Source: Acidimicrobiales bacterium
GTDB lineage: Bacteria > Actinomycetota > Acidimicrobiia > Acidimicrobiales > Bog-793
DNA length: 37,089 bases
Assembly (NCBI GenBank): GCA_035533595.1
Contig: DATLTN010000028.1
Coordinates: 1-37,089, forward strand
Reading direction: 5' to 3'
Under the pieces are notes generated by a model that saw only the letters and a program-made list of their open reading frames with translations, ran no database searches and had not been told where the DNA came from. The first letter of the stretch is position 1. Every line of letters begins with the position of its first letter. Below, one piece after another: positions 135 through 36,417 of this stretch. The translations under genes and the position numbers were made by a program.

Positions 135-2897
135 CTAGGGCCCGCTCTGGTCGGTGATCGTCCAAGTCGAGGTGTAGGTTCCGGCGAAGGCGTCGGCGGG
201 AATCGCGATCTGGAAGGTGAACGAGAGCGTCTGCGGGCCCGTCCCGCTCTGGTCGCTGAAGAAGGTCGCCGCGGCGGGCGCGGGCGCCCCTGCCGGGACG
301 GTGAAGGGGAAGGTCGGGTCGCCGCCTCGTGCCGCCACCGCGGTGCAGGAGAAGGCGGCGTCACACGAGCTGATCGGTGCGCCCACCGTCGTCGCGGCCG
401 CCGAGAGCGCGTGGCCGCCCGAGGAGAAGGTGGTCGAGGTGATCGCGAGCGACCAGGGTGCGGTGGACAGCGAATAGGTGGAGGGGACGAGGTCCATGCT
501 GAGCACGCCGCCGCTCACGCCGTCGACCCCTGGGAGCGTGAAGTTGGGGAAGGTGAACGAGCTCGGCAGGTCGAGGAGGAGCGGGGCACTCACGAGCTCG
601 CGCACGCGGTCGGTGCCCTTGTCCGCGACGACGAGCGCCCCCGAGGGGGCCACGGCGATGTCCGCCGGGGAGTTGAGGGTCGCCGTCGTGCCGCTGCCGG
701 TGTCACCGCAGGCGCCGGTGATCGTCGCACAGGCGGTACCGGTGCCGAAGATGTCGTAGATCCCGCCGGCGGTCATCGAGACCCCGAAGTTCGTGCCGGT
801 GTTCTTCGGCACCATGCCGACCCACTGGTTGGCGGTGTCGGCGACGAACAGGTCGCCCGCCGCGTCGACGGCGACGCCACTCGGCGCGTCGAGCGCCGCG
901 CCCGTCGCCGGGGCGTTGTACGAGCAGCGGGCCACGGTGTGAGTCGAGCAGGCGTTGCCGGTGCCGGCGACGACGTAGAGGTCACCTGCCGTCATCGCGA
1001 TGCCGTAGTTCGTCCCCGACGCGGCAGCGAGCATGCCGATCCAGTTGTTGGCGGTATCAGCGACGAAGAGGTCGCCCGCCGCGTCGACGGCGACGCCACT
1101 CGGCGCGTCGAGCTCGGCGCCCGTCGCCGCAGCGTTGTACGAGCAGCCGGCGACGGTGTGAGTGGTGCAGGCGCTCCCGTTGCCGGCGATCGTGTACGCG
1201 ACGCCGGCGGTCATCGCCTCGCCGTAGAAGGTGCCCGAGGTGGCGGGGATCATGCGGATGCGGTTGTTGGCGGTGTCGGCGACGAAGACATCTCCGGTCT
1301 GGTCGATCGCGACCCCGGCCGGCGCGTTGAAGGGCGTCGAGCTCGCGTACCCGCCGTCGCCGTAGTAGCCGGCGGTCCCGGTGCCGACGACGTCGTAGAT
1401 GTCACCGACCGTCATCGCGACGCCGAACCGCGTCACCGCGGAGGCGGCGAGCATCCCGAGCCATTGGTTGCTCGTGTCGGCGACGATGAGGTCCCCCGAG
1501 CCGTCGACCGCAATCCCCGATGGGGCGTCCAGCAGCGCGCTCGTCCCCGGAGCGTCATAGGAGCAGCCGGCGACGGTATGGGTGGAGCAGGCGGTGCCGG
1601 TGCCGGCGACGACGTAGATGCTGTTCGCGGTCGCCGCCGTGCCGTAGAGGGTCCGCGAGCCGCTCGCTACCAGCGAGACCCAGCTGTCCGGGGGGTCGCT
1701 CACGAAGAGGTCCCCGGCGCCGTCGAGGGCGACGCCGGCGGGCGCGCTCAGCTTCGCGGAGGTTGCCGCGCCGCCGTAGTGACAGCCCCTCACGTTGTGC
1801 GAGACGCAGGCGGTGCCGGTGCCGGCGACGACGTAGATGCGGTCGGCCGCCATCGAGATGCCGTAGTTCGTCCCCGACGCGGCGGCGAGCATGCCCACCC
1901 AGTTGTTGGCGGTGTCGGCGACGAGGAGGTCGCCCGCGCCGTCGACGGCGACGCCAGCAGGCGAAGCGAGCCTCGCGGAGGTCGCGGTCGCGTTGTAGGA
2001 GCAGCCGGCGACGCTGTGGGTGGAGCAGGCGGTGCCGGTGCCGGCGACGACGTAGATGCTGCTCGCCGTCATCGAGATGCCGTAGAGGGTGGCGCTGTCC
2101 TCGGCCAGCACACCGACCCAGTTGTTGGAGGTGTCGGCGACGACGACGTCGCCCGCGCCGTCGACGGCGACGCTGTGCGGCGCGTCGAGCTTCGCGGAGG
2201 TCGCGGTCGCGTTGTAGGAGCAGCCGGCGACGCTGTGGGTGGAGCAGGCAGTGCCGGTGCCGGCGACGACGTAGATGCTGTTCGCCGTCATCGAGATGCC
2301 GTAGTTCGTCCCCGACGAGGCGGCGAGCATGGCGACCCAGTTGTTGGCGGTGTCGGCGACGAAGACGTCGCCGGTCGAGTCGACCGCCACGCCGTCGGGT
2401 TTGTCGAGCTCCGCGGAGGTCGCCGGCCCGTCGTAGCTGCAGCCGGCGACGGTGTGGGTGGAGCACGCAGTGCCGTTCCCGGCGATGGTGTACAGGTCTC
2501 CGGCGGTCATCGTCTGGCCGTAATAGGTGCCCGAGGTGGCAGGGACCATGCGGATGCGGTTGCTGGCGGTGTCGGCGATGAAGAGGTCGCCCGTCGAGTC
2601 GACCGCCAGGCCGGTGGGCGCGTTCGCTGCGCTCCCCGAGGCGATCCCGCCGTCGGCGGCGTAACCCGCCACGCCCACCCCGGCGAGCGTGGTCGCGATC
2701 AGCGCGGTCGCCGCGGCGCCCTGCGGGATGGCGACCAGCGATGCGGCGCCCGTGACGAGCCCGGCGAGGGCCCAGCGCTGCCACCAACGGGAGGGGGATC
2801 GTCTCCGCGGCGCCCGTCGCCCCCCCGCCGAGCGGGGGAGGTGCGGCCGGCGCGCGTCCGACAAACCGGCGCTAGCCGTCCTGGCCGCGGCGGTCAT
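135..2897 (-). CDS. Secreted NHL beta-propeller protein with C-terminal WxL-like domain
   Basis: About 920 residues and probably exported: a basic N-terminus is followed by a hydrophobic stretch near residues 41-64. Ten NHL-type repeats follow, each with a core like GVAVDxxGDLFVADT, in units of about 73 residues. Most linkers carry a cysteine pair (ACSTHxVxGC). The last 150 or so residues form a WxL-like domain: a PWSL motif followed by STTF, then SCDAAFSC, then a terminal YTSTWTI ending in GP. The two small proteins upstream share this pattern. ATG 2897 was chosen because AGGGGAG precedes it, and it overlaps the upstream gene's stop by 26 bp, suggesting coupling. An in-frame start at 2957 would overlap much more. 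NHL propellers bind protein or carbohydrate ligands; the WxL-like tail would hold this one on the cell wall. The ligand is unknown. Confidence 0.85.
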   Translation of the reverse strand: MTAAARTASAGLSDARRPHLPRSAGGRRAPRRRSPSRWWQRWALAGLVTGAASLVAIPQGAAATALIATTLAGVGVAGYAADGGIASGSAANAPTGLAVDSTGDLFIADTASNRIRMVPATSGTYYGQTMTAGDLYTIAGNGTACSTHTVAGCSYDGPATSAELDKPDGVAVDSTGDVFVADTANNWVAMLAASSGTNYGISMTANSIYVVAGTGTACSTHSVAGCSYNATATSAKLDAPHSVAVDGAGDVVVADTSNNWVGVLAEDSATLYGISMTASSIYVVAGTGTACSTHSVAGCSYNATATSARLASPAGVAVDGAGDLLVADTANNWVGMLAAASGTNYGISMAADRIYVVAGTGTACVSHNVRGCHYGGAATSAKLSAPAGVALDGAGDLFVSDPPDSWVSLVASGSRTLYGTAATANSIYVVAGTGTACSTHTVAGCSYDAPGTSALLDAPSGIAVDGSGDLIVADTSNQWLGMLAASAVTRFGVAMTVGDIYDVVGTGTAGYYGDGGYASSTPFNAPAGVAIDQTGDVFVADTANNRIRMIPATSGTFYGEAMTAGVAYTIAGNGSACTTHTVAGCSYNAAATGAELDAPSGVAVDAAGDLFVADTANNWIGMLAAASGTNYGIAMTAGDLYVVAGTGNACSTHTVARCSYNAPATGAALDAPSGVAVDAAGDLFVADTANQWVGMVPKNTGTNFGVSMTAGGIYDIFGTGTACATITGACGDTGSGTTATLNSPADIAVAPSGALVVADKGTDRVRELVSAPLLLDLPSSFTFPNFTLPGVDGVSGGVLSMDLVPSTYSLSTAPWSLAITSTTFSSGGHALSAAATTVGAPISSCDAAFSCTAVAARGGDPTFPFTVPAGAPAPAAATFFSDQSGTGPQTLSFTFQIAIPADAFAGTYTSTWTITDQSGP
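1140..2640 (-). repeat. Tandem ~219-bp repeats inside the NHL gene
   Basis: The NHL units are also DNA repeats. For example, the string gcagccggcgacgctgtggg starts at 2001 and again at 2220, a period of 219 bp or 73 codons. Further near-copies are seen around 1140, 1561 and 2440. The near-identity of some units points to recent internal duplication or gene conversion. Confidence 0.75.
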
Positions 2898-3972
2898 CGC
2901 CGCTCCCCTGGCCGCGCCGCCGGCCGAGCCTCGAGCCGAGCAGGATGCCGCCCCCACCGAGGAGGATCGCGCCGAGGACCGCGATGATCACGATGAGGAC
3001 CGTCGAACTGGAAGACGACGAGGACGCCGGGCCGGCCGTCGTCGGCTTGGTGAACGGGCCCGAGCCGCTCGTCGGCGTCTTCGCCGAAGCGGGCGCGACC
3101 GCCGAGCCCGAGGTGCAGACCGGGGCGCTCAGCCCGCCTCCCTTGGCGCAGGCGGTGATCGTGTAGCGGCCGGAGAGGGCATCCGGCCAGAAGATCGGGA
3201 TGACGGTGCTGTCGCCGGGGAGCAGCGTCTCGAGCGCCTTGCTGATCGTCTTCTTGTAGGAGCCCTTGCTGAGGGTGACGGCCAGATCGGGGTGGCCGAG
3301 CAGGCCGCCGGTGTCGGTGATCGGGATCTCGACCGTCCCGATCTTGTAGGTGCCGAGCTTGATCGTCGGTGGGCCGACGCGGACGGAGAAGCGCGCCGCG
3401 CCCGGGACCGTGACGAGGACGGCGATGACCGAGCGCGTGACCACGCTCACCTGGACGTTGCCTTTGGTCGTCGTGGCCTGTGGGCTCGCCCCCTCGATCG
3501 CCACGCCAGCGAGGTGGTTGCCCGGGCTCGCACCCGCCGGGACGGCGACAGTGAAGTTCACGACAGCGCGCGAGTTGGCCTTCAAGAGGAGCGACTTCTG
3601 CGAGATGGAGATCCAACTCCCCGCGCCCGAGAGTGCTCTGCCCTCGTTGGAGTAGGCCGAGCCCGATCCCGGCGAGGTCAGCCCGTCGACGGGGTAGATG
3701 CGCACCGAGACCTGGTTGCGGTTGGCGTTCGCGACGACCACCGCCCCCGCGTAGGTGCCGCCCGCGGGGACCGTGGGCGCGAAGTAGCTGTCCCCCGCGG
3801 CGAGCTCCTTCGAGCCCGGCGCGGGTCCCGTCCCGACCGAGAAGCCGACCTGGGTCGCGGCGAAGGCGCTCCCTGCGGAGCCGGCGAGCGCGAGCAGTGC
3901 CATGGCACCGCAGGCAAGCAGCGCGACGGGGACGCTCCGCCTCTGGCGGCTGATGGACACGGGCGTCGGCAA
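2872..3972 (-). CDS. DUF916-like, WxL-interacting-type membrane protein
   Basis: 366 residues. A signal peptide (hydrophobic core near 15-37, ending AFAA) is followed by an extracellular part that reads like a DUF916 domain: YFAPTVPAGGTYAGAVVVAN, a YPVDGLTSPGSG segment, SWISISQKSLLLK, and VPAGASPGNHLAGVAIEG. A second beta-rich region follows, then a Pro/Ser/Thr linker, one transmembrane helix (STVLIVIIAVLGAILLGG) and a basic cytoplasmic end. In Firmicutes, proteins with this layout (DUF916/DUF3324, membrane-anchored) sit beside WxL proteins and help hold them at the wall. Here it lies between a WxL-like protein 8 bp upstream and the NHL/WxL protein overlapping downstream. The start is TTG 3972 (weak site) or GTG 3960; neither has a strong ribosome binding site. 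The family call is from sequence pattern only. Confidence 0.8.
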   Translation of the reverse strand: MPTPVSISRQRRSVPVALLACGAMALLALAGSAGSAFAATQVGFSVGTGPAPGSKELAAGDSYFAPTVPAGGTYAGAVVVANANRNQVSVRIYPVDGLTSPGSGSAYSNEGRALSGAGSWISISQKSLLLKANSRAVVNFTVAVPAGASPGNHLAGVAIEGASPQATTTKGNVQVSVVTRSVIAVLVTVPGAARFSVRVGPPTIKLGTYKIGTVEIPITDTGGLLGHPDLAVTLSKGSYKKTISKALETLLPGDSTVIPIFWPDALSGRYTITACAKGGGLSAPVCTSGSAVAPASAKTPTSGSGPFTKPTTAGPASSSSSSSTVLIVIIAVLGAILLGGGGILLGSRLGRRRGQGSGDDRRGQDG

Positions 3973-3980
3973 TCCGCGCG

Positions 3981-4550
3981 CTAGGGCCCGCTGATGAGCG
4001 TGAAGGACCAGGTCGCCGAGTACGTCCCGGCGATTGTGGTGGCGGGAAGGGAGACGTCGAAGTCGACGGCCACGGTCGCGTTGCCCATGCCGCTGCCGGC
4101 CGCGGCGTCAAAGAGGGTCGCCGCCGTCTCGGAGGGCAGCTGGAAGGGGTAGCTGACGCTGTCAATCGGAGCGACACAACCGGAGCCCGTGTCACAGGAG
4201 GCGGTCGGCCGGGAGAGGATCTCGGCGCCAGCGCCGGGGAGTACCCGGCCGCTCGCGCTCATGAAAGCCGTCCCCGACCCCTCGATCCTCCAGCCGGCTC
4301 CCGATCCCGTCGCGTCGGAGACGTCGAAGCTCACGAGGCCGGTGGTGCTCTGGTCGCTGCCAGAGAGCGCGGTCGCCGAGAAGCCGATGTTCGCGGGGGT
4401 GCCGCCGATCAGCTGCAGCTGGCCCGGGGTGATGAGGACGTTGGCGGCGGTCGTCGCGGCACCCGGAGCAGCGGTGCAGCAGACAGTCGCGACGGCGGTC
4501 ACCACGAGGGCAGCAGCGCGCCACTGCGCTCGAGCCCGCCCGTACCCCAT
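3981..4550 (-). CDS. Small secreted WxL-like domain protein
   Basis: 189 residues, with ATG preceded by a perfect GGAGG. A signal peptide (hydrophobic core near 11-32) is followed by one domain that fills the rest of the protein. It holds a first Trp motif GWRIEGSGTAF, a cysteine pair SCDTGSGC, SYPFQLP, VDFDVSLPATTIAGTYSATW and a terminal WSF ending ISGP. This matches the WxL layout of a first WxL, then a C-terminal YxxxWxL ending in P. The paralogue at 4667-5290 and the C-terminus of the NHL protein have the same order. The wall ligand would be peptidoglycan if it behaves like Firmicutes WxL domains. It is second in the operon, with a large hairpin in the 116-bp gap before it. Confidence 0.8.
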   Translation of the reverse strand: MGYGRARAQWRAAALVVTAVATVCCTAAPGAATTAANVLITPGQLQLIGGTPANIGFSATALSGSDQSTTGLVSFDVSDATGSGAGWRIEGSGTAFMSASGRVLPGAGAEILSRPTASCDTGSGCVAPIDSVSYPFQLPSETAATLFDAAAGSGMGNATVAVDFDVSLPATTIAGTYSATWSFTLISGP

Positions 4551-4600
4551 CGGGACCTCCGGTGATCGGCTGAGCCTCGCCGGTGGCCGGACATGCTGAA

Positions 4601-4647
4601 GGGCCGGATACGAGGCGGGGCGAAAAGCGCCACATCGTATCTGGCCC
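4601..4647 (-). terminator. Large hairpin between the two small WxL-like genes
   Basis: Arms 4601-4613 and 4635-4647 are complementary at 12 of 13 positions, and a smaller GGCG/CGCC pairing lies in the loop. It sits between the stop at 4667 and the Shine-Dalgarno of the gene starting at 4550. No clear U-run follows on the minus strand, so it may be a partial terminator, an RNA-stability element or an attenuator that sets the ratio of the first WxL protein to the rest. Confidence 0.5.
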
Positions 4648-4666
4648 GCAACAGGGTCTTAGCTGA

Positions 4667-5290
4667 TCAGGGACCGGCGGCGTAGGTGATCGTCCAGGTC
4701 GAGGTGTACGACCCGCCCGCCGGGGCGTAGGTGGTCGCCGGCAGGGCGACGGTGAAGGTCGGGGTGACCGTCTGGTTCCCCATCCCGCTGTTCGCCTGCG
4801 CGTTGTAGAAGGTGGTCGCGGTCGGCGCGGTGGTCGCCGCTGGGAGCGTGTAGGGGTAGCTCACGTTGGTGTCGCCCGTCGAGCACGTCGCCCCGGTGTC
4901 ACAGCTGTCGGTCACCGAGCTCGTCGCGATCGTCGTCGCGGAGGTGGCGAGGGTGTGCGTGCCGGCGTCCTTGAAGGTCGTCGAGGTCGCTTGCAGCTTC
5001 CAGCCGGAGCCGGAGCCCGACGCGTCCTTCACGTCGATCGCCAGCGTGCCGGTCGTTGCCTGGTCCTGACCGTTCAGGGTCACGCCCGTGAAGCCCACCG
5101 AGCCCGGGATCGTCGCTGTCAGGGTGCCGGCCGAGATGCCGACGCTCGCCGCCACCGTCGCCGATCCCGGCGCCGCAGCAGAGAGGAGGTAGACCGCGAC
5201 GCCGAAGGCACCGAGGGCGACCGAGCATCGCCGGCTCACCCGCCCGGACGGCCGGCGAAGACACACCAACTTCGTGGGAGTGCCCTTCAT
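4667..5290 (-). CDS. Small secreted WxL-like domain protein, first gene of operon
   Basis: 207 residues from ATG 5290. An in-frame extension back to 5449 lacks features of an N-terminus; starting at 5290 places a basic stretch and a hydrophobic segment (about 27-43, then SAAAPGSATVAA) as a normal signal peptide. The mature domain has GSGWKLQATSTTF, SCDTGATC, SYPYTLPAATTA, FTVALPATTY and a final YTSTWTI ending AAGP. These correspond one-to-one with the downstream paralogue and with the C-terminus of the NHL protein. The first motif, WKL, is a true W-x-L; the second is WTI. It heads the surface operon. No strong Shine-Dalgarno is visible, and no well-spaced promoter was found upstream. Confidence 0.8.
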   Translation of the reverse strand: MKGTPTKLVCLRRPSGRVSRRCSVALGAFGVAVYLLSAAAPGSATVAASVGISAGTLTATIPGSVGFTGVTLNGQDQATTGTLAIDVKDASGSGSGWKLQATSTTFKDAGTHTLATSATTIATSSVTDSCDTGATCSTGDTNVSYPYTLPAATTAPTATTFYNAQANSGMGNQTVTPTFTVALPATTYAPAGGSYTSTWTITYAAGP

Positions 5291-7029: not shown

Positions 7030-7103
7030 TGGAGCGGGCGACGAGAATCGAACTCGCGTTCTCAGCTTGGGAAGCTGATGTTCTGCCTCTGAACTACGCC
7101 CGC
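7030..7103 (-). tRNA. tRNA-Gly (anticodon CCC)
   Basis: The minus strand folds as a cloverleaf. Acceptor GCGGGCG pairs with CGCCCGC, the discriminator is U as expected for glycine, and CCA is encoded. The D arm contains TAGTTCAGAGGCAGAAC. Anticodon stem TCAGC/GCTGA surrounds loop TTCCCAA, giving CCC. The T arm has GTTCGATTC. Length is 74 nt. A TACAGT -10 candidate on the minus strand (7139-7144) overlaps the dcd upstream region. Confidence 0.95.
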
Positions 7104-33595: not shown

Positions 33596-33682
33596 GGGCG
33601 AGTGGCGGAATAGGCAGACGCGCAGGATTCAGGTTCCTGTGTTCGAAAGGACGTGGGGGTTCAAGTCCCCCCTCGCCCACCA
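33596..33682 (+). tRNA. tRNA-Leu (anticodon CAG)
   Basis: 87 nt with encoded CCA. Acceptor GGGCGAG pairs with CTCGCCC and the discriminator is A. Anticodon stem CAGGA/TCCTG surrounds TTCAGGT, giving CAG. A long variable arm (type II tRNA) follows, then T arm GGGGGTTCAAGTCCCCC. A TACCCT -10 candidate lies about 15 nt upstream (33575-33580). Confidence 0.96.
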
Positions 33683-36342: not shown

Positions 36343-36417
36343 GCCCGGGTAGCTCAGTGGTAGAGCAGCGCACTCGTAATGCGCAGGTCGTCGGTTCAAT
36401 CCCGACCCCGGGCTCCA
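36343..36417 (+). tRNA. tRNA-Thr (anticodon CGT)
   Basis: 75 nt with encoded CCA. Acceptor GCCCGGG pairs with CCCGGGC and the discriminator is U. D arm is GTAGCTCAGTGGTAGAGC. Anticodon stem GCGCA/TGCGC surrounds CTCGTAA, giving CGT. T arm is GTCGGTTCAATCCCGAC. Confidence 0.96.

What the first reader, a model, noticed from the sequence alone, without database searches (positions are those of the whole stretch)
135..5290. A WxL-like surface display operon in a high-GC actinobacterium
Seen: three proteins end in, or consist of, a domain with the same order: GW-x-L/I (WKL, WRI, WSL), S-x-TTF or similar, an SCD-x4-C cysteine pair, P-F/Y-x-L/V-P, and a final Y-x-x-TW-T/S-I/F ending in GP. Two are small secreted proteins; one carries the domain behind ten NHL repeats. 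A DUF916-like protein with a C-terminal membrane anchor lies between them in the same transcription unit. Known: in Firmicutes, WxL domains attach non-covalently to peptidoglycan and DUF916/DUF3324 proteins are their neighbours and partners. Inference: this is a diverged actinobacterial version with a disulfide-stabilised WxL domain, displaying a propeller on the wall.
Basis: partly seen in the sequence, partly recalled or inferred. Interest (0 to 1): 0.8.

Follow-up and report, generated by a model that had tools for sequence, protein, structure and literature searches.

The report
Actinobacterial WxL surface-display operon
A soil-type actinobacterium carries the same kind of gene set that gut Firmicutes use to hang proteins on their cell wall, here displaying an NHL-repeat (ring-shaped) protein; a core gene of the set turns up in about one in twelve sampled actinobacterial genomes, although the system is described as almost only a Firmicutes one.

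Summary
Four same-strand genes (D, C, B, A in reading order) form a WxL cluster: two small secreted WxL proteins, one membrane-anchored WxLIP (DUF916) and one large protein with ten NHL repeats and a C-terminal WxL domain. D passes the Pfam WxL cut-off; C and A follow by homology to it. B is a WxLIP by sequence profile (its only PDB matches are E. faecium WxLIP, E 4.7e-12) and by fold (Z 18.7 over 239 residues). In Actinomycetota, 42 of 47 loci picked by the WxLIP model alone have a WxL gene beside it, and 33 of 396 sampled genomes have a WxLIP. The cysteine pair is real but marks a subfamily, so a disulfide is likely, not proven. Large WxL proteins carry interchangeable cargo: NHL, RCC1 and BNR-type propellers, lectin-like, FN3, Ig, HtaA, phosphatase. 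A propeller-bearing WxL cluster also exists in Paenibacillus, so the kind is known; the phylum-wide spread, the Cys variant and the NHL cargo look undescribed. A weaker, broader idea: WxLIP and WxL models resemble chaperone and pilin of chaperone-usher pili, suggesting strand complementation.

The parts
4667..5290 (-). D: small WxL protein (signal peptide + WxL domain, 207 aa)
   Evidence: Pfam WxL 30.8 bits, cut-off 25; hydrophobic segment residues 21-48; model pLDDT 89.9, all beta
4670..5143 (-). WxL domain of D
   Evidence: profile A3, E 1.7e-60
4883..4903 (-). C-x5-C of D (SCDTGATC)
   Evidence: sequence; second Cys invariant in 29 aligned domains
3981..4550 (-). C: second small WxL protein (189 aa)
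   Evidence: Pfam WxL 22.1 bits, below cut-off; 44% identity to D
3984..4439 (-). WxL domain of C
   Evidence: profile A3, E 2.7e-58
4176..4196 (-). C-x5-C of C (SCDTGSGC)
   Evidence: sequence
2872..3960 (-). B: WxL-interacting protein (WxLIP; DUF916 domain, second Ig-like domain, C-terminal membrane helix)
   Evidence: Pfam WxLIP_PGBD; PDB profile match to EfmWxLIP1 E 4.7e-12; fold Z 18.7 over 239 aa
3493..3804 (-). PGBD (DUF916) domain of B
   Evidence: 26.9 bits, 27.5 with neighbours, cut-off 27.3
2956..3030 (-). C-terminal transmembrane helix of B and RRR tail
   Evidence: Kyte-Doolittle maximum 2.73; positive tail in 71 of 74 WxLIPs with such a helix
135..2957 (-). A: large WxL protein, signal region + ten NHL repeats + C-terminal WxL domain (start codon uncertain, ATG 2897 likelier)
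   Evidence: ten NHL stretches E 6e-55; WxL by profile E 7e-49
579..2705 (-). NHL-repeat region, about 73-residue units, most with an internal C-x7-C
138..590 (-). WxL domain of A
   Evidence: 40.5% identity to D
345..365 (-). C-x5-C of A (SCDAAFSC)
   Evidence: sequence

Best explanation
The locus is a bona fide WxL (csc-type) cell-surface cluster in an actinobacterium. All four products are exported. B stays in the bacterium's own membrane by its C-terminal helix (positive tail inside) and uses its first Ig-like domain to hold WxL domains. The small WxL proteins D and C and the WxL tail of A attach without covalent bonds to peptidoglycan, and A thereby presents an NHL-repeat beta-propeller outwards as an exchangeable ligand-binding head. 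In this subfamily a disulfide probably staples the loop before the P-Y/F-x-L-P strand. Shown here: membership of B and of the WxL domains, operon-like order, conservation of the gene pairing, the C-terminal position of the domain, the membrane-anchor pattern. Inferred: export, WxL-WxLIP contact, wall binding, the disulfide, what the propeller binds.
For: WxL and WxLIP_PGBD family hits. Profile of actinobacterial WxLIPs matches only EfmWxLIP1 (9i1y, 9i25) among 177,635 PDB sequences, E 4.7e-12. Fold match to 9i25_C Z 18.7, 239 aligned, next two-domain match Z about 11. Among loci chosen by the WxLIP model alone, 42 of 47 have a WxL gene within 3 kb on the same strand; none in the other 29 kb of the window. 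Same gene order small WxL, WxLIP, large WxL in L116, L120-L124, L126 and L016. WxL domains end within 15 residues of the C-terminus in 85 of 87. C-terminal helix with net positive tail in 71 of 74. Actinobacterial profiles recognise the Paenibacillus cluster (WxLIP 2e-30, WxL 4e-15). Literature: WxL binds peptidoglycan, and clusters hold small WxL + large WxL + DUF916 (PMC9772566, PMC10599100, PMC5817068).
Against: C is below the Pfam cut-off and A has no Pfam WxL hit. B reaches the Pfam cut-off only with its neighbours in the frame and shows no Pfam hit to the second domain, PF11797. No solved WxL domain was listed for the D model. No LPxTG protein is seen (contig end). The place of A's domain in the tree is unsure (long branch). 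No wet-lab data for any actinobacterial member were found.
Confidence: 0.86

Rival explanations
1. The WxL-like domains and B work mainly as a pilin-like subunit and chaperone-like partner: B donates a strand to the incomplete sandwich of each WxL domain, as PapD-type chaperones do for pilins, so the cluster is first of all an assembly and folding device, with wall binding secondary or absent.
For: Apart from WxLIP itself, 33 of 50 listed fold matches of B are chaperone-usher chaperones, aligned across both domains (Z 10-11, about 185 residues); 29 of 50 listed matches of the WxL model are chaperone-usher pilins (FimA Z 7.8, Csu pilin Z 7.7 at 2.5 A). [quoted passage not shown] WxL is almost always exactly C-terminal, and an Arg in the strand after that hairpin is kept in 62 of 78 WxLIPs, Paenibacillus included.
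Against: All WxL-pilin Z values are under 8, where a shared Ig-like layout alone may explain them. No complex was modelled here. Wall binding by WxL was shown in Firmicutes (PMC5817068, citing Brinster 2007).
Confidence: 0.1
2. A host-interaction system as proposed for gut Firmicutes, with B's helix inserting into a host membrane.
For: Proposed for E. faecium WxLIP (PMC10599100).
Against: Relatives are metagenome bins whose names point to peat, soil and water; the helix with a positive tail is kept in 71 of 74, which fits a stop-transfer anchor in the bacterium's own membrane, as Siezen 2006 read it (PMC1534035).
Confidence: 0.03
3. Unrelated Ig-like secreted proteins whose motifs resemble WxL by chance or low-complexity composition.
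For: The proteins are rich in A, S, T, G and P, and C and A miss the Pfam cut-off.
Against: Family, profile and fold matches for B and D, and the conserved gene pairing across the phylum.
Confidence: 0.01

Closest known systems
WxL / csc clusters of Lactobacillales and Bacillales (cscA DUF916, cscB small WxL, cscC large WxL; E. faecium loci A-C)
   Same: One WxLIP, small WxL proteins, one large WxL protein with the domain at its C-terminus; signal peptides; membrane-anchored WxLIP; fold of WxLIP
   Different: Actinomycetota; no LPxTG protein seen; Cys pair in the WxL domain; Arg of the D-x-R-G turn replaced in the window proteins; the domain of large protein A has small-type Trp spacing (97); NHL propeller cargo
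Paenibacillus urinalis plasmid cluster (NZ_CP118105, L132): DUF916, WxL, RCC1 protein
   Same: WxLIP + small WxL + propeller-bearing large WxL
   Different: RCC1 instead of NHL repeats; no cysteines in the WxL domain; WxLIP gene first; Bacillota
Solirubrobacterales clusters L120-L124, L126
   Same: Same gene order, Cys-bearing small WxL domains close to D, propeller-like BNR/YCF48 cargo in several
   Different: The large WxL domain has the partner cysteine at its N-terminus; another propeller family
Chaperone-usher pili (PapD/FimC chaperone with pilin)
   Same: Two-domain fold of WxLIP and sandwich of WxL resemble chaperone and pilin
   Different: No usher was looked for; WxLIP is membrane-anchored; weak Z on the pilin side; wall binding

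Membership tests
WxL domain (PF13731) | Pfam score over the curated cut-off | tested here: met
   D 30.8 bits against 25; C 22.1 (below); A none
WxL domain (PF13731) | Two Trp-x-hydrophobic motifs | tested here: met
   WKL/WTI, WRI/WSF, WSL/WTI, spacing 102, 94, 97; strict Leu is not kept in all
WxL domain (PF13731) | Asp at W-8, Arg at W-6 and GTxAG turn before the first motif | tested here: inconclusive
   D and C keep Asp and the Gly-rich turn (DASGSGSGW, DATGSGAGW) but not Arg; A has neither; Solirubrobacterales relatives have DARGTGAGW in full
WxL domain (PF13731) | Domain at the extreme C-terminus of a secreted protein | tested here: met
   all three window proteins end in GP at the domain end; 85 of 87 across loci
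WxL domain (PF13731) | Fold of solved WxL domains | tested here: inconclusive
   confident all-beta model; no solved WxL among the listed rows
WxL domain (PF13731) | Non-covalent peptidoglycan binding | not testable with these tools
   needs purified protein
WxLIP (DUF916-DUF3324-TM) | PGBD (PF06030) profile | tested here: met
   24.3 bits on the protein, 26.9 and 27.5 with neighbours in the frame, cut-off 27.3; actinobacterial relatives reach 49.6
WxLIP (DUF916-DUF3324-TM) | Two Ig-like domains arranged as in solved WxLIP | tested here: met
   9i25_C Z 18.7, 239 aligned; 9i1y_A Z 18.4, 249 aligned; PF11797 itself gave no hit in B
WxLIP (DUF916-DUF3324-TM) | C-terminal transmembrane helix | tested here: met
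WxLIP (DUF916-DUF3324-TM) | N-terminal NQIDKxxxYFDLK motif | tested here: inconclusive
   only the YF core is kept (DSYFAPTV); aligned to that stretch of EfmWxLIP1
[quoted passage not shown]
   D, C, B, A
WxL gene cluster | LPxTG protein (common, not essential) | tested here: inconclusive
   none among the four; contig ends 134 bases after A
Chaperone-usher system | Outer-membrane usher | not tested
   no usher search was made; not filed here as a member
Chaperone-usher system | Chaperone and pilin folds | tested here: inconclusive
   chaperone side Z 10-11, pilin side Z under 8

The most novel reading that the evidence does not exclude
WxLIP and WxL are a Gram-positive counterpart of chaperone and pilin: the hairpin before the last strand of WxLIP's first domain supplies the missing strand of the WxL sandwich, and the conserved Arg in that strand holds the free C-terminus of the WxL domain, which would explain why WxL domains are the very last thing in a protein. 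The membrane-tethered WxLIP would then hand WxL-tagged cargo (propellers, lectins, enzymes) to the wall or to one another.
Probability: 0.27. Interest if true: 0.78.

Novelty: new variant of a known kind. Interest (0 to 1): 0.52.

Why it matters
WxL clusters are described as nearly confined to gut-associated Lactobacillales and Bacillales and are read as host-adhesion and virulence systems. Finding WxLIP in about 8% of sampled Actinomycetota genomes, nearly always beside a WxL gene and with enzymes, lectins and propellers as cargo, suggests a general non-covalent display platform and not mainly a host tool. The published survey demanded E below 1e-10 (PMC10599100), which D (3.6e-7) and B (3.3e-5) would fail, so the blind spot is explained. 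The diverged homologues, with natural variation in one cysteine and in cargo, make the WxL-WxLIP contact and the role of the membrane helix testable.

Tried and rejected
PDB sequence searches with the WxL profiles found nothing, nor with Paenibacillus WxL domains, so WxL membership rests on Pfam and on profile links, not on a solved WxL domain. No solved WxL domain was listed in the fold searches of D; absence from that list was not read as a different fold. Host-membrane insertion of the helix rejected (see rivals). The ten domains with the relocated cysteine form one clade (99/99), so the Fisher p of 1.4e-6 overstates independence and is not used as proof. NHL plus WxL as a common fusion rejected: NHL-repeat proteins are frequent in relatives, but none of the sampled others showed a WxL domain in the stretch held. 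No paper found that joins WxL with beta-propeller cargo, donor strands or PapD (open-licence papers only).
Full report
1. What is in the sequence. Reading on the minus strand the order is D (4667-5290), C (3981-4550), B (2872-3960) and A (135-2957, probable start ATG 2897). The window is one whole contig of a 2.79 Mb, 73-contig assembly, and A ends next to the contig end, so the cluster may continue.

2. Families. Pfam gives WxL for D (30.8 bits, cut-off 25) and C (22.1), WxLIP_PGBD (formerly DUF916) for B (24.3 on the protein, 26.9 and 27.5 with frame neighbours; cut-off 27.3), and ten NHL stretches for A (E 6e-55). A's tail has no Pfam WxL hit but matches D at 40.5% identity over 158 columns (5e-19). 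No further WxL or WxLIP gene was reported in the assembly.

3. B is a WxLIP. A profile of B and ten homologues from related loci finds exactly two PDB sequences among 177,635, both E. faecium WxLIP1 (9i1y, 9i25; E 4.7e-12). The AlphaFold2 model of B (two Ig-like domains mostly confident, tail not) has those same entries as best fold matches (Foldseek E 4e-12; VIA-align Z 18.7 and 18.4 over 239 and 249 residues at 14-15% identity). The next two-domain matches have Z about 11.

4. Conservation of the pairing. WxLIP genes were found in 27 of 298 genomes of the order and 33 of 396 of the phylum. Of 47 loci taken because of the WxLIP hit alone (L080-L098, L100-L107, L156-L175), 42 have a WxL gene within 3 kb on the same strand; of all 78 WxLIPs, some of which were found through WxL, 72 do, and 66 have one directly upstream. 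The other 29 kb of the window give no hit. Named contigs are Actinomycetota metagenome bins, among them Solirubrobacterales and Patulibacter, and a few bins named only as bacterium; Clavibacter and Embleya replicons carry WxL-WxLIP pairs too. The order small WxL, WxLIP, large WxL recurs in L016, L116, L120-L124 and L126.

5. Cargo. Large WxL proteins carry NHL repeats (window), RCC1 repeats (L016), BNR/YCF48-like propeller repeats (L120 over the Pfam cut-off; L122, L123 and L124 alike in sequence but weak or below cut-off), six laminin-G-type lectin domains (L084, L089), FN3 and Ig domains, HtaA, metallophosphatase, GDPD and CBM96. The Paenibacillus urinalis plasmid cluster has WxLIP, WxL and an RCC1 protein with a weak C-terminal WxL hit (20.8 bits; 8e-9 with the actinobacterial profile). 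So propellers on WxL tails are not an actinobacterial invention, but NHL was not seen on any other WxL protein sampled. How many propellers the ten NHL units of A form was not modelled.

6. The cysteines. Of 84 distinct WxL domains, 38 have the second Cys; 25 of these have the partner a few residues before it, 10 have it instead at the start of the domain, one has both, two have neither (one of them a fragment). The ten form one clade (99/99). The second Cys is thus almost never without a partner, which fits a disulfide. The other domains, the Paenibacillus ones included, lack this pair. Most NHL units of A carry a C-x7-C as well.

7. Mechanism. Shown: family membership, gene pairing, C-terminal position of WxL (85 of 87), a conserved membrane helix with positive tail on WxLIP (71 of 74). 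From Firmicutes: WxL binds peptidoglycan and WxL proteins bind their transmembrane partner (PMC5817068, citing Brinster 2007 and Galloway-Pena 2015; PMC10599100). Inferred: export, complex formation and display of A's propeller on this bacterium. The positive tail and the origin of the relatives argue for an anchor in the bacterium's own membrane, not in a host's.

8. A broader idea. The WxL model (pLDDT 89.9) has chaperone-usher pilins as 29 of its 50 listed VIA-align entries (best Z 7.8), and the WxLIP model has chaperone-usher chaperones as 33 of 50 (Z 10-11; both counts made by eye from the lists). Published models have a WxLIP strand completing the WxL sandwich in parallel (PMC10599100). 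An Arg in the strand after the hairpin is kept in 62 of 78 WxLIPs. That a chaperone-like residue grips the WxL C-terminus, as in PapD (own knowledge), is inference. Z under 8 is weak, and PDB 9i25 may already settle it.

9. Novelty. The Firmicutes system is known; DUF916 in Actinomycetota has been noted in passing as a neighbour of a metal-binding family (PMC12537917). I found no description of actinobacterial WxL clusters, the cysteine variant or NHL cargo in the open-licence papers searched; supplementary tables could not be read.

Noticed in passing
window 579-2705 (protein A): Seven of the NHL units carry an internal C-x7-C (CSTHTVAGC type) and one a C-x6-C, suggesting a disulfide in most blades of the propeller.
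   Followed up: partly
L089 8359-15402 and L084 7167-14153: WxL proteins of about 2,340 residues with six laminin-G/concanavalin-like lectin domains next to WxLIP genes.
   Followed up: partly
L132 5890-10723 (Paenibacillus urinalis plasmid NZ_CP118105): Bacillota plasmid cluster of WxLIP, WxL and an RCC1 propeller protein with a C-terminal WxL-like domain.
   Followed up: yes
L135 4752-9418 (Deinococcus sp. NW-56 plasmid): A protein matching the WxLIP profile (3e-34) beside a small secreted protein and a 1013-aa surface-type protein, without a detectable WxL domain: a possible distant relative of the system.
   Followed up: no
L133 2608-11304 (Clavibacter phaseoli plasmid pCCh): A WxL-WxLIP pair sits between family 43 glycoside hydrolases, recalling the proposed carbohydrate role of csc clusters.
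   Followed up: no
L166 4298-6319, L169 7222-9726, L160 4583-6139: WxL tails on metallophosphatases and on an HtaA domain; DUF916 and metallophosphatases were reported as neighbours of the Ang-2 metal-binding family in Actinomycetota (PMC12537917).
   Followed up: no
L165 and L173 (two 1.8 Mb genomes): WxLIP-like genes with no recognisable WxL gene nearby.
   Followed up: no
window 7030-7103, 33596-33682, 36343-36417: Three tRNA genes (Gly, Leu, Thr); nothing links them to the cluster.
   Followed up: no
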